Origin: Streptomyces sp. NBC_00483
GTDB taxonomy: Bacteria; Actinomycetota; Actinomycetes; Streptomycetales; Streptomycetaceae
Length of the DNA: 64,000 nucleotides
Reading direction: 5' to 3'
NCBI RefSeq assembly: GCF_036013745.1
Contig: NZ_CP107880.1
Location: forward strand, 7,254,001 to 7,318,000
Below are positions 23,541 through 34,398 of the stretch, piece after piece. Numbering within the stretch: position 1 is the stretch's first letter; each line of letters begins with the position of its first letter. A program made the translations under genes and the position numbers. Under the pieces are notes generated by a model. That model made no database searches, was not told the origin of the DNA, and worked only from the letters and a program-made list of their open reading frames with translations.

Positions 23541-25175
23541 TCAGATCTGTGGGCGGGCCCGTTCCGCCAGTGCCGTCAGGTCCAGCGTGTGCGGCAGTGT
23601 TCCGAAGCCCGCGCCCCTGTCGCCCCCGAACCGCGCCGCGCAGAACGCGTCCGACACGTCGTCGGGTCCGTACCGCGCGAGCAGCGAACCCTGGAGCACC
23701 AGCGCGATCCGCTCCGCGATCCGGCGCGCCCGCGCCTCGATGCCGTCCAGGTCGCCGAGTTCGGTCAGTAGATCCTTCACCGCCGCGTCGAGCCGGTGAT
23801 CGGCGCCGCGCGCCTTGCCGATCTCGATCAGGAACGCGTTGAGCGCCTGCGGCTCCCGCTGCAACGCCCGCAGGACGTCCAGGGCCTGTACGTTCCCCGC
23901 GCCCTCCCAGATCGAGTTCAGCGGTGACTCGCGCAGCAGCCGCGGCATGCCGGACTCCTCCACGTACCCGTTGCCCCCGAGGCATTCGAGGGCCTCCGCC
24001 ACCAGCGGCGTACAGCGCTTCGTCACCCAGTACTTGGCCGCGGGCACCGCGATCCGCAGGAAGGCACGCTCCTGCTCGCCCCCGTCGTCGTACGCCGCCG
24101 CGAGCCGCAGCGCGAGCGTGGTCGCGGCCTCCGACTCCAGGGCCAGATCCGCCAATACGTTGCTCATCAGCGGCTGGTCGGCCAGCTTCGCGCCGAACGC
24201 CTCGCGGTACGCGCAGTGGTGGGTCGCCTGCGCCACCGCCTGCCGCATCAGGGCCGCGGAGCCGAGCACGCAGTCGAGCCGGGTCGCCGAGACCATCTCG
24301 ATGATGGTGCGCACCCCGCGCCCCTCCTCACCGACCCGGCGCGCCCACGTCCCGTCGAACTCGACCTCGGCCGACGCGTTGGACCGGTTGCCCAGCTTGT
24401 CCTTCAGGCGCTGGAGGGCGAACGGGTTGCGGGTGCCGTCCTCCAGGACGCGCGGCACGAGGAAACAGGTGAGGCCCGCGCCGGTCTGCGCGAGCACCAG
24501 GAAACCGTCCGACATCGGCGCGCTGCAGAACCATTTGTGGCCGGTGAGCGTGTACGTCCCGTCCTCGGACAGGGGCACGGCCCGCGTCGTATTGGCCCGT
24601 ACGTCGCTGCCGCCCTGCTTCTCCGTCATCGCCATGCCGAAGAGCGCCCCGGCCTTCTGCCCCGCGGGGCGCAGCCCGGAGTCGTAGACCGGGGACGTCA
24701 GCAGGGGCTCCCACACGGCGGCGAGGTTCGGCTCGGCGCGCAGCGCGGGCACCGCCGCGTGCGTCATCGACAGCGGGCACAGGTGTCCCGCCTCCACCTG
24801 CGACCACACCAGGAACGCGGCGGCGCGCCGCAGATGACCTCCCGGCCGTGTCCACGCCGACGTGAGCCCCGCCGACACGCTCTTGCCCAGGAGCCGGTGC
24901 CACGCGGGATGGAACTCCACCTCGTCGATCCGGTGGCCGTAGCGGTCGTGGGTGCGAAGGCGTGGCGGGTTCTCGTTCGCGAGCCGGCCCCACTCCTGGG
25001 CCTGCGTCGACCCGGCGGTGCGGCCGAGCAGTTCGAGCTCGGCCCCGACCTCGGCCAGCAGGTCGGGGGCCAGATGCCGCCGCACACCCCCGACGAGGGC
25101 CGCGTCGGCGCTGTAGACGTCGTACCCGGTCAGCGGCGGGGGCTGATTGGTGACGGTGTGTGTGCTGCCTGCCAT
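23541..25175 (-). CDS. aidB: AidB-type acyl-CoA dehydrogenase
   Basis: A 544-residue flavoprotein with the AidB hallmarks 'GMAMTEKQGGSDVRANTT' and 'GHKWFCSAPMSDGFLVLAQT', plus the C-terminal 'ALECLGGNGYVEESGMPRLLRESPLN'. AidB has an acyl-CoA dehydrogenase fold with a DNA-binding surface and is part of the alkylation response in E. coli. The precise activity remains uncertain. It begins 36 bp after the SbnA-like stop on the same strand, so it may be read through from the diaminopropionate operon, perhaps by chance. Confidence 0.88.
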   Translation of the reverse strand: MAGSTHTVTNQPPPLTGYDVYSADAALVGGVRRHLAPDLLAEVGAELELLGRTAGSTQAQEWGRLANENPPRLRTHDRYGHRIDEVEFHPAWHRLLGKSVSAGLTSAWTRPGGHLRRAAAFLVWSQVEAGHLCPLSMTHAAVPALRAEPNLAAVWEPLLTSPVYDSGLRPAGQKAGALFGMAMTEKQGGSDVRANTTRAVPLSEDGTYTLTGHKWFCSAPMSDGFLVLAQTGAGLTCFLVPRVLEDGTRNPFALQRLKDKLGNRSNASAEVEFDGTWARRVGEEGRGVRTIIEMVSATRLDCVLGSAALMRQAVAQATHHCAYREAFGAKLADQPLMSNVLADLALESEAATTLALRLAAAYDDGGEQERAFLRIAVPAAKYWVTKRCTPLVAEALECLGGNGYVEESGMPRLLRESPLNSIWEGAGNVQALDVLRALQREPQALNAFLIEIGKARGADHRLDAAVKDLLTELGDLDGIEARARRIAERIALVLQGSLLARYGPDDVSDAFCAARFGGDRGAGFGTLPHTLDLTALAERARPQI

Positions 25176-25211: not shown

Positions 25212-26192
25212 TCACCCGCTGTGCGTCAGTGCGGTCTCACGCTCCCGTTCCGGCCACGCGAGGTCGTCGTGCGGCCAGCCGGGGCGGTAGACGGTGTCGA
25301 GGTAGCGCTCGCCGAAGTCAGGGGCGATCGCCACCGAGGTGAGTCCGCGCCGCCCGTGCCGGGCCAGCCACTGCTCGGCGCCGCACACCACGGTGCCGGT
25401 CGACCCGCCGAACAGGAAACCCCGGCCGGCGAGCGTGCGGCACGCGTGCAGCGCGTCCGCCTCGTCGACGTGCACCACGTCGTCGATGTACGAGGTGTCG
25501 AGCAGCGGCGGCCGCACACTGGCGCCGAGGCCCGGGATGAGCCGGCGCCCGGCGGGCCGGCCGAAGCTCACCGAGCCGACACTGTCGACGGCGACGATGC
25601 GCACCGGGCGCCGCCACTGCCAGAACCAGCGGGCACACCCCATCAGGGTGCCCGTCGTCCCCGCCCCGACGAACAGCACGTCCAGGCGCGGGAAGCGGTG
25701 GGCGATGGCCGGAGCCGTGGTGCGGAAGTGCGCCCGCCAGTTGTGCTCGTTGCTGTGCTGGTCGAGCCACACGTACCGGTCGTCGGTCGCGCACAGCGCC
25801 CGTACGTACGCGAGCCGGGCCGCCAGCAGACCGCCGTGCGCCGCCGGTTCGCGCACCACGTGCACATGACTGCCGAGCGCCTCCATCAGCCGGATCGTCG
25901 GCTGGTTGCAGCGGTCGTCGGTCACGCACAGGAACCGATATCCGCGGTGCGCCGCGATGATGCTGAGCGCGAGGCCCAGATTCCCCGACGACGACTCGAT
26001 GAGGACCCGGCCGGGCCGCAGCCGACCGTCGCGCTCGGCCGCGTCGACCATCTCGGTGGCGGCCTTCAGCTTGATGGATCCGGCGAAGTTGAACCCTTCG
26101 CACTTGAGGAAGAGCGGCAGGCCGAGGGCCCCCCGCAGATCGACGTACAGCTCTTCCTCGTTGAACTGTGCGGGATCGTCAATGACTGGCAT
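25212..26192 (-). CDS. sbnA: SbnA-like PLP enzyme for 2,3-diaminopropionate synthesis
   Basis: A 326-residue fold-type II PLP enzyme of the cysteine-synthase family. The Schiff-base lysine is K41 ('GFNFAGSIKLKAA'), the substrate loop is 'IESSSGNLGLALS', and the phosphate cradle is 'GAGTTGTLMG'. SbnA joins O-phosphoserine and glutamate to N-(2-amino-2-carboxyethyl)-glutamate, the first step to L-2,3-diaminopropionate. Assignment over O-acetylserine sulfhydrylase rests on the adjacent SbnB-like gene (57 bp upstream) and the AGSIK and SSSGN variants typical of SbnA. Confidence 0.87.
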   Translation of the reverse strand: MPVIDDPAQFNEEELYVDLRGALGLPLFLKCEGFNFAGSIKLKAATEMVDAAERDGRLRPGRVLIESSSGNLGLALSIIAAHRGYRFLCVTDDRCNQPTIRLMEALGSHVHVVREPAAHGGLLAARLAYVRALCATDDRYVWLDQHSNEHNWRAHFRTTAPAIAHRFPRLDVLFVGAGTTGTLMGCARWFWQWRRPVRIVAVDSVGSVSFGRPAGRRLIPGLGASVRPPLLDTSYIDDVVHVDEADALHACRTLAGRGFLFGGSTGTVVCGAEQWLARHGRRGLTSVAIAPDFGERYLDTVYRPGWPHDDLAWPERERETALTHSG

Positions 26193-26249
26193 GACGTGCG
26201 CCGCCCCCCTCCTGCATGTGTCCCCCGTGTTCCATGTCCTTCCCGCCCT

Positions 26250-27278
26250 TCAGCCGTGCCGTCGCAGTTCGTGGAAGAAGCCGTCCACGACGTGCAGGTG
26301 GCCGCGCCGGGCCACTTCGTCGTGGACGTACCGCCCGACGGCCAGGTCGAGTACCCCGAGCCCGAACGGCGAGAACACCACCGTCCTGTCGCCCGGGACA
26401 TCGACACGACCCGTCAGTACGTCGTCGAGCGTGCCGTCGATGAAGTCCCTTCCTCCGGTGAGTTGTTCGGCCAGGTGCGGTGAGGTGTCCGCCTTGAGGC
26501 AGTGCTCGATGTCGTCCACGAAGTTCGCGCTCTCGAGCAGGATCTCGGGTGCGAGATCGCGCAGCGACACATGCAGCACCAGTGGATGGTGTGCGAACCA
26601 GGCCGGGTCGTGGATGTGCGGTTTCGCCGTGACCGTGGCGAAGACCACCAGGTCGCTGGTGCGGATGAGGGATTCGGCGGTCTCGTGCACCGTGATCCGT
26701 CCCTTGGTGCCCGCCCGCTCCAGATAGCCGCGGAACCCGGCCGCGCTCTCCGCCGACACGTCGTGCACACCCGTGTCCTCGAACTCCTGGCCGGTCGCCG
26801 CGAGATGGGTGTGGATGTGCCGGGCGATCAGTCCGGTGCCGACGAAGCCGACGCGCCGCGGGCGCGCCCGGCCCCGGCCGAGCCGGTCGGCCGCGAGTGC
26901 CGCGGACGACGCCGTGCGTGTCGCGCTGATCACCGAACTCTCCAGGCACGCGTACGGATAGCCGGTGTCCGGGTCGTTGAGGATGAGCACGGCGGAGGCG
27001 CGCGGCAGCCCCGAGCGGGTGTTCTCCGGGAAACTGGAGATCCACTTGATGCCGTCCGTGCGCAGCGGCCCGCCGAGCGAGGCGGGCAGCGCGATGATCC
27101 GTGCGCTCGGTCGGTCAGGGAACCGCAGGAAGTACGAGGGCGGGTTCACGGTGTCGCCCGTCCCGTGCAGCCGGTACACCGCCTCGATCAGCTCGGCGAT
27201 CTCCAACTGGTGGCCGGTTACGATCCGTTGGACCTGTTCGCCGGATATCACGGCGAACCGAGGTGCGGCGGCGGTCAT
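26250..27278 (-). CDS. sbnB: SbnB-like 2,3-diaminopropionate-forming dehydrogenase
   Basis: A 342-residue protein of the ornithine cyclodeaminase/mu-crystallin family with the Rossmann motif 'VGFVGTGLIARHIHTHL' and 'SLRDLAPEILLESANFVDDIEHCLKA'. SbnB oxidatively cleaves the SbnA product with NAD to release L-Dap, 2-oxoglutarate and ammonia-derived products. The ATG at 27278 overlaps the stop of the dioxygenase gene (ATGA). With SbnA it provides Dap, the probable monomer of the synthetase encoded upstream. Confidence 0.87.
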   Translation of the reverse strand: MTAAAPRFAVISGEQVQRIVTGHQLEIAELIEAVYRLHGTGDTVNPPSYFLRFPDRPSARIIALPASLGGPLRTDGIKWISSFPENTRSGLPRASAVLILNDPDTGYPYACLESSVISATRTASSAALAADRLGRGRARPRRVGFVGTGLIARHIHTHLAATGQEFEDTGVHDVSAESAAGFRGYLERAGTKGRITVHETAESLIRTSDLVVFATVTAKPHIHDPAWFAHHPLVLHVSLRDLAPEILLESANFVDDIEHCLKADTSPHLAEQLTGGRDFIDGTLDDVLTGRVDVPGDRTVVFSPFGLGVLDLAVGRYVHDEVARRGHLHVVDGFFHELRRHG

Positions 27279-28273
27279 CCGGTGACCGCCTCGACGGTCG
27301 GCTTGCAGTCCGCGAGCCGGACCGGGTCGGCGAGCGCGACGAGCACCTCGCGCGGCCCGTCGAACGGCTCCCGACTGTGCGCGGTGCGGATGTTGTCGAC
27401 GAGCAGCAGGTCGCCCCGCTGCCACCGGGTGCGCAGGGTGTGCGCCTCGTACACCTCGTTGAGGGTGCGCACGACGTCCTCGTCGAGCGGATCGCCGTTG
27501 CCGTACAGGGTGTTGAAGGGCAGCCCGTCGGCCCCGTACTCGTCGACGAGGTACTCGCGGACCTCCGGCTCCATCGTCCACTGGCTCAGGAACGCGATCT
27601 GGTTGAACCAGACCGGGGCGCCGTCGCGCGGATGACGGAGGACGGCGCTGCGCCGCTGCCGGGTCCGCAGCGAGCCGTCGTCCTGCCAGGCGAACTCGAT
27701 GGCGTGGGCGCGGCAGTAGGCCGCGACGGCATCGCGGTCGTCGGTGCCGAACGCCTCGGCCACCGACGCGCCGAGCTCCTCGTGGTACGTCCGCGTGAGG
27801 ATCCAGCCCTCCCGCTCGAACCGCTCGGCGAGCGGGGCGGGCAGCGCGTGCAGGACGGCCCGCGCGTCGGCGAGACCGGTCTCGCCACCGCTCGCGGACG
27901 CCTCCAGGCAGGCGAACTGCAGCAGCCCGGGGAACTCCAGGCAGTAGCTCAACTCATGGTGCATGCACATCGGTTGGTTGGGCGGCCACTTGGTGGCGGA
28001 GTACACGCCGTCCGGGTACGTGCGGCGCGGCGCGAACGGCTCGCGGTCGGCCATCAGGGTGTCCGCCGCCTGTTTGAAGACGGCGGCGGTGACGTCCGGG
28101 GTCGTGAGGCCGAGGCCGCGCACCATGGCGCAGCCGTGCTCGGCGACGACGGTGTGCAGCGCCTCGCGGTGCTCGGCGGTCCACCCCTCCGGGTCGCCGG
28201 CGCAGTCGGCGTGCACCAGAGGAGGGCCTTCGGTGGACGTGTCGATGTCTGGGAACGGATTCGAGAGCGGCAT
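27275..28273 (-). CDS. TauD/TfdA-family Fe(II)/2-oxoglutarate dioxygenase
   Basis: A 332-residue oxygenase with the iron triad H105-x-E107 ('CMHHELSY') and H299 ('DNIRTAHSREPF'), plus R308 for 2-oxoglutarate. It resembles SyrP-like hydroxylases that act on amino acids, free or carrier-bound, in peptide natural products. A glutamate instead of aspartate in the H-x-D/E motif still binds iron. Being overlapped with sbnB and 46 bp from the adenylation gene, it probably hydroxylates Dap or the tethered residue. The substrate is inferred. Confidence 0.8.
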   Translation of the reverse strand: MPLSNPFPDIDTSTEGPPLVHADCAGDPEGWTAEHREALHTVVAEHGCAMVRGLGLTTPDVTAAVFKQAADTLMADREPFAPRRTYPDGVYSATKWPPNQPMCMHHELSYCLEFPGLLQFACLEASASGGETGLADARAVLHALPAPLAERFEREGWILTRTYHEELGASVAEAFGTDDRDAVAAYCRAHAIEFAWQDDGSLRTRQRRSAVLRHPRDGAPVWFNQIAFLSQWTMEPEVREYLVDEYGADGLPFNTLYGNGDPLDEDVVRTLNEVYEAHTLRTRWQRGDLLLVDNIRTAHSREPFDGPREVLVALADPVRLADCKPTVEAVTG

Positions 28274-28319
28274 GCGGGTGCGCTTCCTTTCCGGTGATTC
28301 GGATGGCTGTGGTGGTGGT

Positions 28320-30356
28320 TCAGGGGGACCGGTCGAGCAGCTCGGCCAGGTCCGCGAGAACCGGATGGCGTGTGACGTCCTTGAGGGTGATCGCCCGGTC
28401 CAGGGAGATCGCCAGCTTCACGGCGGCCAGTGAGGTACCGCCCAGGTCGAAGAAGTGGTCGTGCCGGCCGATGTGTTCGGCCGGCACGCCGAGCACATCG
28501 GCCCAGAGCACGGCGAGCCGACGCTCGACCTGCGTACGGGGAGGCTCGGTTCCGCTCGCCAACTGCTCGGCGAGCGCGGTCAGGGCACGGCGGTCGGTCT
28601 TGCCGTTGGCGGTCAGCGGCAGCCGCTCGCGCCAGTGCACGACCGACGGCACCATGTATGCGGGCAGCGCGGCCGCCACCGGCTTCTTCACGTCCACGGG
28701 CCGGGGCCCGGTGCAGAACGCCGCCAACTGCGTGCCCCGCACCACGACCACCGCCGCCTCGCGGACGCCGTCCACCCGCGTCAACGCGTTCTCGACCTCA
28801 CCGATCTCGACGCGGAAGCCGCGGATCTTGACCTGGCCGTCGCGGCGCCCGAGGAACTCCAGCTTTCCGTCGGGCCGCCAGCGCCCGTGGTCGCCGCTGC
28901 GGTACAGGCGCTCGCCGGGCCGGTACGGGTCCTCGGCGAACGCCGCCTTCGTGCGCTCCGGATCGTTGACATAACCACGCCCGACGCACACCCCCGAGAA
29001 GACGATCTCGCCGGGCGCGCCCAGCGGAACCGGCAGCAGGTCCTCGTCGACGACGTAGACGCGCACGTTCCTGACCGGCGGCCCGAGTGGTACCCGGTCG
29101 CCGTCCGGCGGGCGGTCCATCACCTCGTGGTTGGTGTCGTCGGACGTCTCCGTGAGGCCGTACGCGTTGACGAGCCTCACCCCGGGCCGCGCTGCGAACC
29201 AGCGGCGCACCAGCTCCGCCTTCACGGCCTCCCCGGTGACCGACACACAGTGCAGGGCGGGGAGGGGACGGGGCCGCAGCGCCAGCTCCGCGAGCACCGC
29301 CTCCAGATAGGACGGGACCACCTGCAGCACGTTCACCCGACCCCGCTCGACCGTGTCCACGAACCGGGCGACGTCGAGGATCGTGTCCTGCCCGACGACG
29401 AGGGCGCGACCGCCGACGACCAGCGCGGACACCAGCTGCCACAGCGAGATGTCGAAGCACTGCGGAGCCGTCTGCGCCACCACGTCGTGCGGGCCGATGC
29501 CCAGATCCTCGACCTTGGCGAGGACATGGTTGAGGAACCCGGCGTGCTCGCACAGCGCCCCCTTGGGCTCGCCGGTGGACCCCGAGGTGAAGTACAGATA
29601 GGCGAGTTGGTCCGCGTGGACCGGTACGCCCGGGTCGGTGTCGGGGTGGCCCTCGGCGTACGCGTCCGCCACGGACAGGGTGCCGTCCCGGTCGGCGACA
29701 ACGAGCCGGCAGTCGGCGCGGGCGAGCATCGTCGCGACGCGCTCGGCCGGGAAGTGCGGCTCGACCGGCAGATACACCCCGCCGGCCTTGAGGACGCCGA
29801 GGACGGCGGCCGCCCAGTCGAGGCCGCGCTCCATGACGACGGCGACGACCCCCTCGGGCCGCAGGCCGCGCGCGAGCAGGGCCCGACCCACCTGGTTCGC
29901 ACGGGAGTTGAGCTCGGCGTATGTCCACTGCCGGTACTCGTCCGCGATGGCCGGCGCGTCCGGGTGGGCGGTCACCCGCTCCTCGAACAACTCGTGCACC
30001 CGCCGGTCCGGCAGGGCGCGCGGTGGTCCCGCCAAGTCCTCCAACTGGTACCGGAGTTCGGCCTCGGACAGCAGGTTCCGGAGTGGCGGTCCGGTCAGCG
30101 CGGCCAGGTGGTAGCCCGCGACACGGGCGGCGGCCTCGGCGTCGAGGGCGTCGGTGCGGTAGCTCAGCCGCAGGCTGCCCTCTTCCGTGACATCTACCCC
30201 GAACACCGGGTCATCGGGGTGCAGGGACAGGGCGGCGCGTACCCGCGCGTGGGCCGCGTCGAGCACCTCATCGGTCACCGACAGGCCGACGGGGAGCGGT
30301 ACGTCGTGTGTCGCGATACCCGGAGCGGGGTTGCGGGCCCACTGATAGTCCGTCAT
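28320..30356 (-). CDS. NRPS-like adenylation-thiolation protein (Pls/PosA front half)
   Basis: A 678-residue protein. Residues 1-115 look like a short linker or degenerate condensation tail. An adenylation domain spans about 118-590, with A3 'YFTSGSTGEPKG' at 255-266, A5 'NAYGLTETSD', A7 'YRSGDHGRW' and A10 'LPLTANGKTDR'. A thiolation domain ends the protein, with the phosphopantetheine serine S642 in 'DLGGTSL'. Aligning by hand to GrsA gives pocket residues D-I-W-Q-S-T-A-D-D-K. The two acidic residues at GrsA positions 330/331 fit a diamino-acid side chain. The ATG overlaps the stop of the membrane synthetase part. There is no C, E or TE domain. Confidence 0.88.
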   Translation of the reverse strand: MTDYQWARNPAPGIATHDVPLPVGLSVTDEVLDAAHARVRAALSLHPDDPVFGVDVTEEGSLRLSYRTDALDAEAAARVAGYHLAALTGPPLRNLLSEAELRYQLEDLAGPPRALPDRRVHELFEERVTAHPDAPAIADEYRQWTYAELNSRANQVGRALLARGLRPEGVVAVVMERGLDWAAAVLGVLKAGGVYLPVEPHFPAERVATMLARADCRLVVADRDGTLSVADAYAEGHPDTDPGVPVHADQLAYLYFTSGSTGEPKGALCEHAGFLNHVLAKVEDLGIGPHDVVAQTAPQCFDISLWQLVSALVVGGRALVVGQDTILDVARFVDTVERGRVNVLQVVPSYLEAVLAELALRPRPLPALHCVSVTGEAVKAELVRRWFAARPGVRLVNAYGLTETSDDTNHEVMDRPPDGDRVPLGPPVRNVRVYVVDEDLLPVPLGAPGEIVFSGVCVGRGYVNDPERTKAAFAEDPYRPGERLYRSGDHGRWRPDGKLEFLGRRDGQVKIRGFRVEIGEVENALTRVDGVREAAVVVVRGTQLAAFCTGPRPVDVKKPVAAALPAYMVPSVVHWRERLPLTANGKTDRRALTALAEQLASGTEPPRTQVERRLAVLWADVLGVPAEHIGRHDHFFDLGGTSLAAVKLAISLDRAITLKDVTRHPVLADLAELLDRSP

Positions 30357-32782
30357 GACTGCCTCTCCACTGCCGGGTTGCCGCCCCAGTCGGCGCCCGC
30401 CGGCATCTGCTCGCCCTTCATCAGGAAGGAGTCGGGCGCGAGCACGGCGCCGTCGCTCATCTCGACGCCGTAGTGCACCAGCGCGCCCGTGCCGACCGTG
30501 CAGCCCGAACCGATCACGATCCGGTCCGACTTGAAGGTGCCGTCCTCCTGCGAGTGGGCCTGCACCTTGCTGTGCGCGCCGAGCGTGGAGTCGTCGCCGA
30601 TCGCCGTCAGCGTGCGCTCGGTGATGGAGGCCCCGTCGTCGAAGACCCGGCGCCCGACCCGCACGCCGAGCAGCCGCCACACCACGTTCTTGAACGGTGT
30701 CCCGTTGAACGCCACGAGATGGTTGGACGGCACCTTCCACAGCCGCTCGTGCCACCGGAAGTACGGGTCGTAGATCGAGCACAACTGGGGTGCGAGCGGC
30801 CGGAAGCGGCAGATCAGCCGCTCCACGAGGACGTAGAAGCAGGTGCTGAACACGAGCGCGAAGACCATCGCCGCACCGATCACCAGGCCGCCTGCGACAC
30901 CCGCGCCGCCGTACAGGTCGATCGCGCCGAACGCGACGACCGACAGCGCGAACCAGTGCAGCCACCGCACGCACAGGAACAGGCCCATCGTGCGCAGGTT
31001 GTAGCGGTTCTTCGCGGCCAGCCTGCGCCGGAACTCGGCGCCCTGCTTGAAGTGGTCGAAGCGGCTGTCGCGCTCCACCGTGCGCGGGATCTCGAACGGC
31101 GGTGAGCCGAGCAGGCCGACATTCGAACGGACCTCGCCGTCGAGCGGCACCATCACCTTCGTGGCGAGCAGCACGTTCTCGCCGGTGCGGCCGCCCGCCG
31201 GGTAGGCGATGTGGTTGCCGAGGAAGCTGTGCGCCCCGATCGTCGCGCGGCTGACCCGGAACGAGGTCGCCGAGAACTCCGCGTTCATGATCGAGAGCCC
31301 GTCGGCGACCATCGTGCCGCTGCCGACCGTCGCCAGGTACGGCGTCTCGTGCTGCACCTCCGTACCGAAGTTCGAGCCTGTCTGCTCCACGTGCGAGAGG
31401 TCGTACCCGAGGGACTGCAGATAGCCGACGATGTGCGAGCTGTCACCGCACAGCCACTTGAAGAACTTGATGTTGGTCAGCCGTGCGACGGTGCGCTGCA
31501 CGCCGTACCGGAAGCCGTACAGCGGATACGTGCGGTCCGGCCGCACCAGTGGCGCCAGTGCGCGCGGCAGCCACGCCACGGTCGCGAAGCCGAACCCGAT
31601 GAACGCCAGGTACCCGATGAGGGACACGCCGAGCGCCTCGCCGTAGAAGGCCGGCGAGCCCAGATCCTGCGAGCCGGGATCCAACAGCACATCGAGCGTG
31701 GGCAGCTCCGTCAGCGCGAGATAGCTGCCTCCGACCGCGAGCGGCGTGTACACGAGGAGCACGTGCGCGAGGCCCGCGAGCGCGAAGCCGGCGCGCCGCG
31801 GCGCGGACGGGCGGGCCGGTGGTACGCGGACGTAGTCGACGTCGGTCGGCTGCGCGGGAGAGCCGTGCCAGTGCTCGCCCGCCGGTACCGCCGCGCCGTC
31901 GTACAGGGCGGAGGCATGGCCGAGTTGGGCGCCGTCGCCCAGCGCCGTGCCGATGTCGAGGACGGTCTTCTCGCCGACGAAGACGTCACGGCCGAGGGTC
32001 ACGGGGCCGGTGCGGATGCGTCCCGCGATCGCCCGATACCCCAGGAAATGGGCCTCTTTGCGGACGACGGTGTCCGCGCCGATCGTCAACAGGTCGGTAC
32101 AGACCGGCACGACACGGGACAGGATCGTCACGTTCGGGCCGATGCGCGCGCCCAGGAGTCGCAGGTACTGCACGTACAGCGGGCTGCCGACGAACAGGAT
32201 CATGGGGTTGGCGTGCAGCAGCGCCTTCACCGTCCAGAAGCGGAGGTAGGCGAGGCTCCACACCGGGAACTCGGTCTCCCGCCAACGGCCCACGAGCAGC
32301 CACTTCGCCGCGATGGGCAGCAGGCAAGCGCCCGCGAACAGGGCGCCGCCGAAGAGCGCGGAGCGCGTGTACACCTCGACGACACCACTGCCCGTCGAGA
32401 CCCACTCGTAGCCATGGCCGGCGGCCACCCCCGCGAGTGCGCAGTACGCGACGAACACCAGGAACTGCAGTGCCCCGCAGAGCAGATAGCGGGGTGTGCT
32501 GCCGGGCTCGGGCGGCGGCGGTGGTGGCTTCGGTGGTGACTTCGTGGCCAGCGGGGCGGCGTCGATCGCCGCGGCCAGCGAACGGATCGTCGGATACCCG
32601 TAGACGTCCCGCATGGACACCGACGGCAGGTCCTCCCGTTTCCGTACCCGCGCACAGAAGTGAGCCATCACGAGGGAGTTGGCGCATAAATCGTCGAAGA
32701 AATGGCTTTCTGGTGGGACATGATCCACCCGGACGACACCCGCCAGGACTTCGGCGAGAACGTGCTCCGTGCCTTGTGCCAC
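30353..32782 (-). CDS. Thiolation plus six-TM tandem-domain protein (Pls/PosA back half)
   Basis: An 809-residue protein that begins with its own carrier domain (S36 in 'DDLCANSLVMAHF'), a Pro-rich linker, then six membrane helices (near 97-125, 140-165, 325-350, 372-400, 610-635, 640-668) alternating with three soluble domains. The soluble parts contain left-handed beta-helix hexapeptide-like repeats ('GADTVVRKEAHFLG', 'GDDSTLGAHSKV'). This is the layout of the C-terminal half of epsilon-poly-L-lysine synthetase, whose tandem domains join carrier-bound monomers into an isopeptide chain. Here it is a separate polypeptide, first gene of a five-gene operon. Confidence 0.85.
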   Translation of the reverse strand: MAQGTEHVLAEVLAGVVRVDHVPPESHFFDDLCANSLVMAHFCARVRKREDLPSVSMRDVYGYPTIRSLAAAIDAAPLATKSPPKPPPPPPEPGSTPRYLLCGALQFLVFVAYCALAGVAAGHGYEWVSTGSGVVEVYTRSALFGGALFAGACLLPIAAKWLLVGRWRETEFPVWSLAYLRFWTVKALLHANPMILFVGSPLYVQYLRLLGARIGPNVTILSRVVPVCTDLLTIGADTVVRKEAHFLGYRAIAGRIRTGPVTLGRDVFVGEKTVLDIGTALGDGAQLGHASALYDGAAVPAGEHWHGSPAQPTDVDYVRVPPARPSAPRRAGFALAGLAHVLLVYTPLAVGGSYLALTELPTLDVLLDPGSQDLGSPAFYGEALGVSLIGYLAFIGFGFATVAWLPRALAPLVRPDRTYPLYGFRYGVQRTVARLTNIKFFKWLCGDSSHIVGYLQSLGYDLSHVEQTGSNFGTEVQHETPYLATVGSGTMVADGLSIMNAEFSATSFRVSRATIGAHSFLGNHIAYPAGGRTGENVLLATKVMVPLDGEVRSNVGLLGSPPFEIPRTVERDSRFDHFKQGAEFRRRLAAKNRYNLRTMGLFLCVRWLHWFALSVVAFGAIDLYGGAGVAGGLVIGAAMVFALVFSTCFYVLVERLICRFRPLAPQLCSIYDPYFRWHERLWKVPSNHLVAFNGTPFKNVVWRLLGVRVGRRVFDDGASITERTLTAIGDDSTLGAHSKVQAHSQEDGTFKSDRIVIGSGCTVGTGALVHYGVEMSDGAVLAPDSFLMKGEQMPAGADWGGNPAVERQS

Positions 32783-33237: not shown

Positions 33238-34398
33238 GTGCAGCCAGCAAGTGAATCCCCCCAGGAAGTGACGTCCGGACGCCTCCATCGGGCTCGCGTC
33301 CTCTATCAGAACGTCTCCAAGCGCAGGACTGCCTGGCTGCTCCTGAAGGACACCGTCAACTCGTGCATGGAGTACCGCATCCTGGGCCTCGCGGCCGAGG
33401 CGGCGTTCTTCACGCTCCTGTCGGTGCCGCCGCTGCTGCTGTCCCTGGTGGGTCTGCTGGCGTACGTCGACACCTGGACCGGCGCCGACACCATCGCGGG
33501 CGTCCGCGACAACATCCTGGAGGCCTCCCGCACGGTCCTCACCGACCAGGGCGTGAAGGAGATCGCAGAACCGATTTTGGACGACGTCATCAAGGGCGGC
33601 AGGCCCGACGTCATCTCCATCGGCTTCCTGCTCTCGCTCTGGTCGGGCTCGCGCGCGGTGTCGACGTTCGTGGACACGGTGACCGTGATGTACGGACTCG
33701 ACGGCGTCCGCGGCATCGTGAAGACGCGGCTGCTCGCCTTTCTGCTCTTCCTGGTGGGGCTCGTCGTCGGCGCGATAGCGCTGCCGCTGATGATCGCGGG
33801 TCCGGACGCGGTGATCGGGCTCGTGCCCTGGTCCCAGTCCCTCGTCCAGATCTTCTACTGGCCCGTGGTCCTGGTGCTGTCCATCGCGTTCCTGACGACT
33901 CTGTACCACGTGTCGGTGCCGGTGCGTTCGCCGTGGATCGAGGACGTGCCGGGGGCCCTCGTGGCGCTGGCGATGTGGATTCCCGGCAGCTTCCTGCTGC
34001 GGCTCTACCTCACCAACACCATCGAGGGCCCGACCATCTACGGCTCCCTCGCCGCACCCGTCGCCGTGCTGCTGTGGATCGGTGTCTCGGCGTTCGCGGT
34101 GCTCGTCGGCGCCGCGGTGAACGCCGCGATCGACCGCGTGTGGCCGTCGGTCGCGACGGCGGCGGCGCGCGCCGCGAACGAGCGGGTGCGCAGGGCGGCC
34201 GCCACCGAGCAGTTGGCCCGGGCGGCCGCGCTGGGCTTCCCCGACGACGACGAGGAGCTGGACGACGGCGACGACCCGGGCATGCCGTCCGAGTTCCCGG
34301 AGCGCTGGTCGAAGTTCCTGCCTCCGGAGGACGTCACGTCCCGCCTGCGCACGCACGTCCGGAAGAACGGTGACGGGTCGGAGGACGAGGAGGACTGA
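33238..34398 (+). CDS. YihY/BrkB family membrane protein
   Basis: A 386-residue inner-membrane protein with six hydrophobic spans between residues about 50 and 300 and the family segments 'RILGLAAEAAFFTLLSVPPLLLSL' and 'YHVSVPVRSPWIEDVPGALVALAMWI'. The acidic C-terminus ('DDDEELDDGDDPG') is cytoplasmic and disordered. YihY proteins are not RNases despite old annotations; their role is unsettled. The gene is divergent from the poly-amino-acid operon and has no evident link to it. Confidence 0.85.
   Translation: MQPASESPQEVTSGRLHRARVLYQNVSKRRTAWLLLKDTVNSCMEYRILGLAAEAAFFTLLSVPPLLLSLVGLLAYVDTWTGADTIAGVRDNILEASRTVLTDQGVKEIAEPILDDVIKGGRPDVISIGFLLSLWSGSRAVSTFVDTVTVMYGLDGVRGIVKTRLLAFLLFLVGLVVGAIALPLMIAGPDAVIGLVPWSQSLVQIFYWPVVLVLSIAFLTTLYHVSVPVRSPWIEDVPGALVALAMWIPGSFLLRLYLTNTIEGPTIYGSLAAPVAVLLWIGVSAFAVLVGAAVNAAIDRVWPSVATAAARAANERVRRAAATEQLARAAALGFPDDDEELDDGDDPGMPSEFPERWSKFLPPEDVTSRLRTHVRKNGDGSEDEED

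What the first reader, a model, noticed from the sequence alone, without database searches (positions are those of the whole stretch)
25212..32782. Split Pls/PosA-type synthetase with dedicated diaminopropionate supply
SbnA- and SbnB-like genes make L-Dap. The same operon encodes an A-T protein and a separate T plus six-TM, three-domain protein that together reproduce epsilon-polylysine synthetase. A poly(Dap) or Dap-containing isopeptide is therefore likely. Published poly-amino-acid synthetases are single polypeptides as far as I recall, whereas this one is cut between two carrier domains, so that two T domains face each other in trans.
Basis: partly seen in the sequence, partly recalled or inferred. 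Interest (0 to 1): 0.85.

Follow-up and report, generated by a model that had tools for sequence, protein, structure and literature searches.

The report
Split membrane synthetase using diaminopropionate
A five-gene bacterial operon, found in about a third of the sampled relatives in the same genus, appears to make a polymer of the small amino acid diaminopropionate with a membrane polymerase that has lost its own activating half and uses a borrowed activating-and-oxidising cassette instead.

Summary
Confirmed: five co-directional genes encode a carrier plus six-TM Pls/PosA terminal protein (T-TM-C), an A-T protein, a TauD-type oxygenase, SbnB and SbnA. It is no assembly artefact: T-TM-C lies upstream of A-T, 95 of 100 loci with 7 kb or more downstream hold all five genes, and 28 of 90 sampled same-genus genomes hold the split form. 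The 'cut between two carriers' reading is wrong. T-TM-C proteins form one clade beside fused Pls enzymes, while A-T proteins nest among A-T(-TE)/TauD cassettes from loci without T-TM-C, far from 23 Pls A domains. A Pls thus seems to have lost its A domain and to work in trans with an imported cassette. The A-domain signature is DIWQSTADD in 121 of 121 cases. All 12 cassettes with it elsewhere carry a likely Dap-making pair, so Dap is the probable substrate. TauD accompanies A-T in 96 of 97 loci and is fused to it in three, so an oxidised Dap oligomer is likelier than plain poly-Dap. Two Pseudonocardia plasmids show a possible intermediate: degenerate A, three carriers, TM-C and TauD. Product and enzymology are untested.

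The parts
30353..32782 (-). T-TM-C protein (809 aa): carrier domain (residues ~8-73, Ser36) plus six TM helices and three soluble domains, Pls/PosA terminal domain
   Evidence: PF00550, TIGR02353 763 bits full length; TM 98-123,141-165,331-352,382-406,599-621,623-658 by hydropathy; model helices 96-129,134-164,327-359,377-412,581-627,630-657
32558..32782 (-). T2: native Pls-type carrier domain of the T-TM-C protein (DLCANSL)
   Evidence: PF00550; carrier Ser in 99 of 99 split and 23 of 23 fused rows
28320..30356 (-). A-T protein (678 aa): short N-terminal stretch, adenylation domain, carrier T1 (DLGGTS); no thioesterase here
   Evidence: PF00501, PF13193, PF00550 (as part of P0004); start by ATGA overlap; of six relatives' proteins examined three have a partial condensation-domain match and two a thioesterase (one of the six is a fused Pls)
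28599..29987 (-). Adenylation domain, nine-residue signature DIWQSTADD
   Evidence: A-domain core motifs present
28335..28520 (-). T1 carrier domain of the A-T protein
   Evidence: PF00550; phosphopantetheine Ser in 119 of 119 A-T homologues
27275..28273 (-). TauD/SyrP-like Fe(II)/2-oxoglutarate oxygenase (332 aa), candidate metal ligands HHE (from 105) and HSR (from 299)
   Evidence: PF02668 152 bits; HH[DE] in 116 of 116 homologues
26250..27278 (-). SbnB-like dehydrogenase (342 aa), second enzyme of Dap formation
   Evidence: TIGR03944 403 bits, cutoff 327
25212..26192 (-). SbnA-like PLP enzyme (326 aa), first enzyme of Dap formation
   Evidence: TIGR03945 365 bits, cutoff 350

Best explanation
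A two-protein, membrane-bound Pls-type synthetase. SbnA and SbnB make L-2,3-diaminopropionate (Dap). The A domain of the A-T protein activates Dap and loads its carrier T1. TauD oxidises the carrier-bound Dap, most likely at C3. The aminoacyl unit reaches the second carrier T2 on the membrane protein, by direct loading of T2 by the A domain or by T1-to-T2 transfer. The three soluble domains held by six TM helices then link Dap units through side-chain amides and pass the chain out, which would fit the absence of a recurring transporter gene. It arose when a fused Pls lost its A domain and an A-T(-TE)/TauD/SbnB/SbnA cassette of the kind found beside NRPS genes took over in trans. Shown by sequence: gene content, domain integrity, conservation, separate ancestry of the two halves. 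Inferred: Dap as A substrate (about 0.85), trans cooperation (0.8), TauD acting on carrier-bound Dap (0.65), isopeptide oligomer as product (0.6).
For: 95 of 100 loci with at least 7 kb downstream hold all four partners (a few genomes are in the set twice and the window is one of the 100). In 36 loci no other gene family recurs beyond 6 loci, apart from an antisense ORF over SbnB in 11. T-TM-C clade: 47 split plus 2 solitary rows together, SH-aLRT 98, fused L056 and L058 just outside. A domains: operon rows nest in a 49-row clade (99) with 12 A domains from loci without T-TM-C, apart from 23 Pls A domains. Signature DIWQSTADD in 121 of 121 of these; fused Pls examined have DAESIGTVV (L056, L061), DFECLSVVT (L058, L209, L213) or DFEALGTVT (L211). 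12 of 12 cassette loci have a likely Dap pair: SbnA+SbnB in 7, SbnA-like+ArgH-like lyase in 5. A-T-TauD single ORFs in L044, L173, L175. Carrier and A-domain key residues kept. The same operon occurs in another family of the class (L233, L234).
Against: No product, activity or expression data. Free 3-hydroxy-Dap would be an unstable hemiaminal (chemical reasoning), so the oxidised unit is uncertain. 51 of 99 complete loci carry a TE, which could mean the A-T module releases its amino acid. Solitary T-TM-C proteins without A-T nearby exist (L046, L053, L206, L208, L210, L232, L235); the genomes of L046, L053, L232 and L235 do hold a full or nearly full operon elsewhere, but on six plasmids with T-TM-C relatives no cassette A-T was found (best 30%). 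One locus (L055) has A-T but no TauD or SbnB was detected. The signature register was set by eye against recalled GrsA motifs. The trees are quick ones with long-branch and composition warnings.
Confidence: 0.6

Rival explanations
1. Plain poly(Dap) homopolymer; TauD acts only on ends or on something else.
For: T-TM-C keeps 63 of 70 positions nearly invariant in fused Pls; SbnA and SbnB are in 95 of 100 loci; poly-Dap made by a single-chain Pls relative is known (PMC4668381, parts read).
Against: TauD is in 96 of the 97 loci that have A-T among the 100 with enough flank, the TauD of the T-TM-C loci and of the Pseudonocardia Pls form one clade (support 86), and TauD is fused to A-T in three loci.
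Confidence: 0.15
2. The A-T(-TE)/TauD pair makes a modified amino acid that is released or passed on, and T-TM-C joins it to free Dap or to another acceptor (dipeptide, lipid or cell envelope), so there is no polymer.
For: A TE is present in 51 of 99 complete loci, as part of the A-T protein where examined; A-T-TE plus TauD occurs apart from any T-TM-C.
Against: The operon has no second A domain to load T2 with a released amino acid; 48 of 99 complete loci, the window among them, have no TE; the T-TM-C part belongs to polymerising enzymes in the two papers looked into.
Confidence: 0.17
3. The A domain activates another amino acid and Dap is only the acceptor.
For: The signature DIWQSTADD was not found in any paper of the library, so its substrate is unproven; VioC-like hydroxylases sit beside some cassettes.
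Against: One A domain per operon; two acidic signature residues suit a small cationic side chain (inference); all 12 cassettes elsewhere have a likely Dap pair, five by a different lyase.
Confidence: 0.1
4. Assembly frameshift or broken fused Pls.
For: Nothing in the window; degenerate A domains exist in Pseudonocardia relatives.
Against: Gene order is T-TM-C then A-T; A-T has another ancestry; conserved in dozens of assemblies.
Confidence: 0.01

Closest known systems
Poly(L-diaminopropionic acid) synthetase PDAPs with NjxA/NjxB, Streptomyces albulus PD-1 (PMC4668381)
   Same: Dap made by a cysteine-synthase homologue and an ornithine-cyclodeaminase homologue; carrier followed by TM helices and three tandem soluble domains
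   Different: PDAPs is one polypeptide of 4,338 bp with seven predicted TM segments, Dap genes are not close to it, no oxygenase is mentioned in the parts read; here the A domain is on another protein of other ancestry
epsilon-Poly-L-lysine synthetase Pls and delta-poly-L-ornithine synthetase PosA (PMC10522769, passages)
   Same: Terminal domain TIGR02353, carrier directly before TM1
   Different: Described there as adenylation, carrier and terminal membrane domain in one protein with a conserved Glu in the substrate pocket; here Trp at that signature position and the A domain is in trans
A-T(-TE) plus TauD plus SbnA/SbnB cassettes without T-TM-C
   Same: A-T 59-62% identical with the same signature, TauD 52-61%, SbnA and SbnB 61-72%
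   Different: No T-TM-C within the 20 kb fetched; product unknown
SyrP/AmbC-type oxygenases acting on carrier-bound amino acids (recalled; 'AmbC' also appears as a source name of close homologues)
   Same: TauD family with HxE beside an A-T protein
   Different: Substrate and site not tested here

Membership tests
Pls/PosA (cationic homopolyamino acid synthetase) | Terminal membrane domain TIGR02353 with six TM helices and three soluble domains | tested here: met
   763 bits, positions 1-695; six TM; 63 of 70 near-invariant positions kept
Pls/PosA (cationic homopolyamino acid synthetase) | Carrier domain directly before TM1 | tested here: met
   PF00550 8-73, Ser invariant
Pls/PosA (cationic homopolyamino acid synthetase) | A domain in the same polypeptide | tested here: not met
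   A domain is in the next gene
Pls/PosA (cationic homopolyamino acid synthetase) | A domain of Pls lineage with Glu at signature position 3 | tested here: not met
   DIWQSTADD; outside the Pls A domains in the tree; Glu conserved per PMC10522769 passages
Pls/PosA (cationic homopolyamino acid synthetase) | Makes a homopolymer by side-chain amide bonds | not testable with these tools
   needs product analysis
2,3-diaminopropionate synthase pair SbnA/SbnB | Both proteins above the NCBIfam equivalog cutoffs | tested here: met
   TIGR03945 365 vs 350; TIGR03944 403 vs 327
2,3-diaminopropionate synthase pair SbnA/SbnB | Forms Dap in vitro | not testable with these tools
   needs enzyme assay
TauD/SyrP-type Fe(II)/2OG hydroxylase | HxD/E and distal His metal ligands, not the halogenase HxG/A (rule recalled) | tested here: met
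   HHE at 105 and HSR at 299 in the window protein; HH[DE] in 116 of 116; a loose pattern for the distal site matched 88 of 101 operon, 11 of 11 cassette and 0 of 4 Pseudonocardia sequences
Canonical NRPS module | Condensation domain with HHxxxDG | tested here: not met
   No Condensation match in the window protein at E 0.001; three relatives match only profile positions 186-291 of 456

The most novel reading that the evidence does not exclude
A distributive form of the Pls machine: the membrane polymerase has discarded its own activating domain and receives carrier-bound, enzymatically oxidised Dap from a separate soluble module, carrier to carrier. This would make a new class of oxidised Dap isopeptide polymer. 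Fused Pls with a degenerate A domain and multiplied carriers, as in Pseudonocardia, would be relics of the transition.
Probability: 0.35. Interest if true: 0.78.

Novelty: new variant of a known kind. Interest (0 to 1): 0.62.

Why it matters
Pls-type synthetases are described in the two papers looked into as self-contained single chains. A split form, frequent in the genus, would show that the membrane polymerising part can be fed in trans by a foreign A-T module, which makes its carrier recognition and chain-growth chemistry testable with soluble parts and opens a route to other monomers. It also points to a common actinobacterial metabolite family that I did not find described in the papers searched.

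Tried and rejected
Frameshift or assembly join: rejected by gene order and conservation. A-T as the severed half of a Pls: rejected by tree and signature. A first guess that relatives' longer A-T proteins carry an N-terminal full condensation domain was wrong: in L034 and L049 the extra length is a C-terminal thioesterase plus a partial condensation-domain match. A first motif count for T1 failed because my pattern was too narrow (17 of 124 matched); redone by aligned position. Paper searches found no split Pls and no mention of the signature (listings only); most subscription papers are not in that library. Comparison of the predicted fold with solved structures could not be run. The trees are quick ones (SH-aLRT only, LG+G4), and the tool warned of long branches and uneven composition among fused rows. 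The distance correlations of the five proteins (r 0.73-0.87 over 60 of 96 complete loci) have no species control. Of the 14 best non-operon A-T hits fetched, two (L184, L185; signature DIWELTADD) were left out of the count of 12; L184 has SbnA/SbnB-like genes (49/52%), L185 none in the fetched stretch. Weaker A-T hits were not fetched.
Full report
What is there. The five genes lie on the minus strand and are read from 32782 down to 25212: T-TM-C (30353-32782), A-T (28320-30356), TauD (27275-28273), SbnB-like (26250-27278), SbnA-like (25212-26192). Two junctions are ATGA overlaps (for T-TM-C/A-T; for TauD/SbnB). Family matches are above curated cutoffs for SbnA, SbnB and the Pls/PosA terminal domain, and PP-binding, AMP-binding and TauD are clear. 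The genome is a single 10.24 Mb contig that also holds a second, fused Pls (open frame 1927 aa) at another place. The genus is taken as Streptomyces because a 99% identical T-TM-C protein comes from a named Streptomyces.

Not an artefact. The carrier-plus-membrane gene comes first and the A-T gene second, so no frameshift between them could yield the Pls order. In 150 related genomes, full-length T-TM-C proteins 57-76% identical and in open frames of 812-1118 aa occur in 28 of the 90 same-genus genomes (my count from the rows); two fused relatives are 53-54% identical (G060, G126) and full-length hits to other fused Pls 27-31%. In an even sample of 394 genomes of the class, 17 have a match at E 1e-120 or better, 4 of them outside the genus, and the matches include two fused enzymes (G126, G492). 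A scan of the named genome collection with two short patterns found 553 stretches encoding some relative, of which the best 80 were kept: 79 Streptomyces and one Kutzneria. Of 114 T-TM-C loci examined, 100 had at least 7 kb downstream, and 95 of these held A-T, TauD, SbnB and SbnA: 49 with a thioesterase and 46 without. A-T was found in 97 of the 100 and TauD in 96. The five exceptions are L046 and L053 (solitary), L055 (A-T and SbnA only), L059 (pieces and SbnA only) and L078 (genes in pieces; SbnB below my threshold). The set includes the window and some genomes fetched twice. SbnA lies upstream on the other strand in four loci (L045, L054, L055, L057). Among 36 loci no other gene family recurs in more than 6, except an ORF antisense to SbnB in 11, which I take as spurious. 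The operon also occurs in another family of the class (L233 complete; L234 complete up to the contig end), each genome with a solitary T-TM-C paralogue as well.

Two ancestries. A quick tree of 72 T-TM-C regions puts the 47 split and 2 solitary rows in one clade (98), with the fused enzymes L056 and L058 just outside and 21 other fused enzymes far away. A quick tree of 86 A domains puts 36 of 37 operon A domains in one clade (99) inside a larger clade (99) with 12 A domains from loci that lack T-TM-C; the 23 A domains of fused Pls lie elsewhere. The nine-residue signature is DIWQSTADD in 121 of 121 of these A domains aligned over 330 positions or more (109 operon, 12 cassette; duplicates of genomes included). 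Of the fused Pls examined for the signature, L056 and L061 show DAESIGTVV, L058, L209 and L213 DFECLSVVT, L211 DFEALGTVT, in the register of the strings quoted in PMC10522769, where the pocket Glu is called conserved and Phe at position 2 is given for Dap/Dab synthetases. L209 has ectB directly upstream, which fits diaminobutyrate.

What the A-T family does elsewhere. I fetched the 14 best A-T hits that lie apart from a T-TM-C gene. Twelve carry the signature. In these, A-T (with or without TE) stands near TauD in 11 (none seen in 20 kb of L182). A likely Dap supply is present in all 12: SbnA plus SbnB in 7, and a 30-31% SbnA-like protein plus an argininosuccinate-lyase-like protein in 5. The lyase route to Dap is my inference, and the SbnA-like protein of L181 is below the SbnA cutoff (202 vs 350 bits). 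The other two loci (L184, L185) have DIWELTADD; L184 has SbnA/SbnB-like genes, L185 none in the stretch. A-T and TauD are one ORF in L044 (operon), L173 and L175 (cassettes), which lie on different branches of the A tree. Two cassette loci (L172, L175) also carry a phosphoglycerate dehydrogenase next to SbnA, fitting O-phosphoserine supply. These are the grounds for taking Dap as the A substrate and carrier-bound Dap as the TauD substrate.

Integrity. A-domain core motifs are present. The A10 Lys and T1 Ser are kept in 119 of 119 A-T homologues, and the T2 Ser in 99 of 99 split rows. T-TM-C keeps 63 of 70 positions that are near-invariant in 23 fused enzymes; seven are lost, among them the Gly of the carrier motif DLGANSL, which is Cys here. 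The TauD motif HH[DE] is present in 116 of 116; a second, loose pattern for the distal His region matched 88 of 101 operon, 11 of 11 cassette and 0 of 4 Pseudonocardia sequences. The AlphaFold2 model (mean pLDDT 70.3, pTM 0.74, 11 sequences) shows six long helices and three strand-rich regions. By sequence profile parts of the first and last of these resemble hexapeptide acyltransferases and gamma-carbonic anhydrases; whether the three soluble domains form an internal trimer is untested.

Possible intermediates. Plasmid records (annotation as in PLSDB) show fused Pls in Pseudonocardia autotrophica (L207) and P. alni (L212) with a degenerate A domain (A3 motif SFDTDG instead of TSGSTG; no AMP-binding_C match), three tandem carriers, a TM-C 50-51% identical to the window, and directly downstream a TauD 51% identical. 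Pseudonocardia sp. EC080610-09 (L214) has a degenerate A ORF, T-TM-C, TauD and an SbnA-like gene. Their TauD groups with the operon TauD (support 86), with the cassette TauD of L174 next and the other ten cassette TauD apart. No cassette A-T was found on the six plasmids searched (best 30%), so what loads their carriers is unknown.

Mechanism and doubt. The best reading is a two-protein synthetase in which the A-T module activates and, with TauD, oxidises Dap, and the membrane protein polymerises it. Whether the A domain loads T2 directly or T1 hands its unit to T2 is open. The TE present in 51 of 99 complete loci is not essential, because the window and 47 other complete loci lack it. An oxidised C3 of Dap would be a hemiaminal, stable only when N3 is acylated, or could end as a double bond or aldehyde; this is chemical reasoning, not a result. 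Plain poly(Dap) remains possible.

Known or new. PMC4668381 (abstract, parts 1 and 2 of 5, and passages read) reports PDAP synthetase as one ORF of 4,338 bp, with Dap genes not close to it. PMC10522769 (passages read) treats the family as single proteins with adenylation, carrier and terminal membrane domain. The listings of ten paper searches showed no split member. I therefore call it a new variant of a known kind, with the ancestry result and the degenerate-A relatives as the most unexpected parts.

Noticed in passing
L207:10207-15470, L212:4622-10143, L214:7706-15251 (Pseudonocardia plasmids): Pls with a degenerate A domain, TM-C and an adjacent TauD; three tandem carriers in L207 and L212; what loads the carriers is unknown.
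   Followed up: partly
L206:8923-11463, L208:8629-11733, L210:9013-11748, L046, L053, L232, L235: Solitary T-TM-C proteins without A-T nearby, with one to three carriers in the plasmid ones; L206 and L208 sit among copper or metal-handling genes (CopC, CDF, DUF305; ZIP), and L208 has an 84-residue SbnA match upstream.
   Followed up: partly
L172-L183: A-T(-TE)/TauD/Dap-supply cassettes, several beside large NRPS genes, four also with a VioC-like hydroxylase homologue at 57% or more; products unknown.
   Followed up: partly
L178-L182: SbnA-like (30-31%) plus argininosuccinate-lyase-like gene in place of SbnA/SbnB, suggesting an aspartate-based route to diaminopropionate.
   Followed up: no
L209:4861-10403 (Skermanella mucosa plasmid): Fused Pls with signature DFECLSVVT directly after ectB, pointing to a poly-diaminobutyrate synthetase; its carrier-TM-C part is 48% identical to the window protein.
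   Followed up: no
L059, L060 (genome G107): Several T-TM-C and A-T copies or pieces on two contigs, with up to three carriers in one protein; perhaps a tandem repeat collapsed in assembly.
   Followed up: no
L044:11066-14635, L173:8634-11984, L175:8044-11574: A-T and TauD encoded as one protein.
   Followed up: yes
window 23541-25175 and 33238-34398: Isovaleryl-CoA dehydrogenase-like gene and YihY-like membrane protein gene flank the operon; among 36 relatives' loci each is shared with only five, close ones, so I do not count them as part of it.
   Followed up: yes
genome G000:C1:9082865-9084919 (L061): Second, fused Pls with signature DAESIGTVV and a long N-terminal extension in the same genome.
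   Followed up: partly
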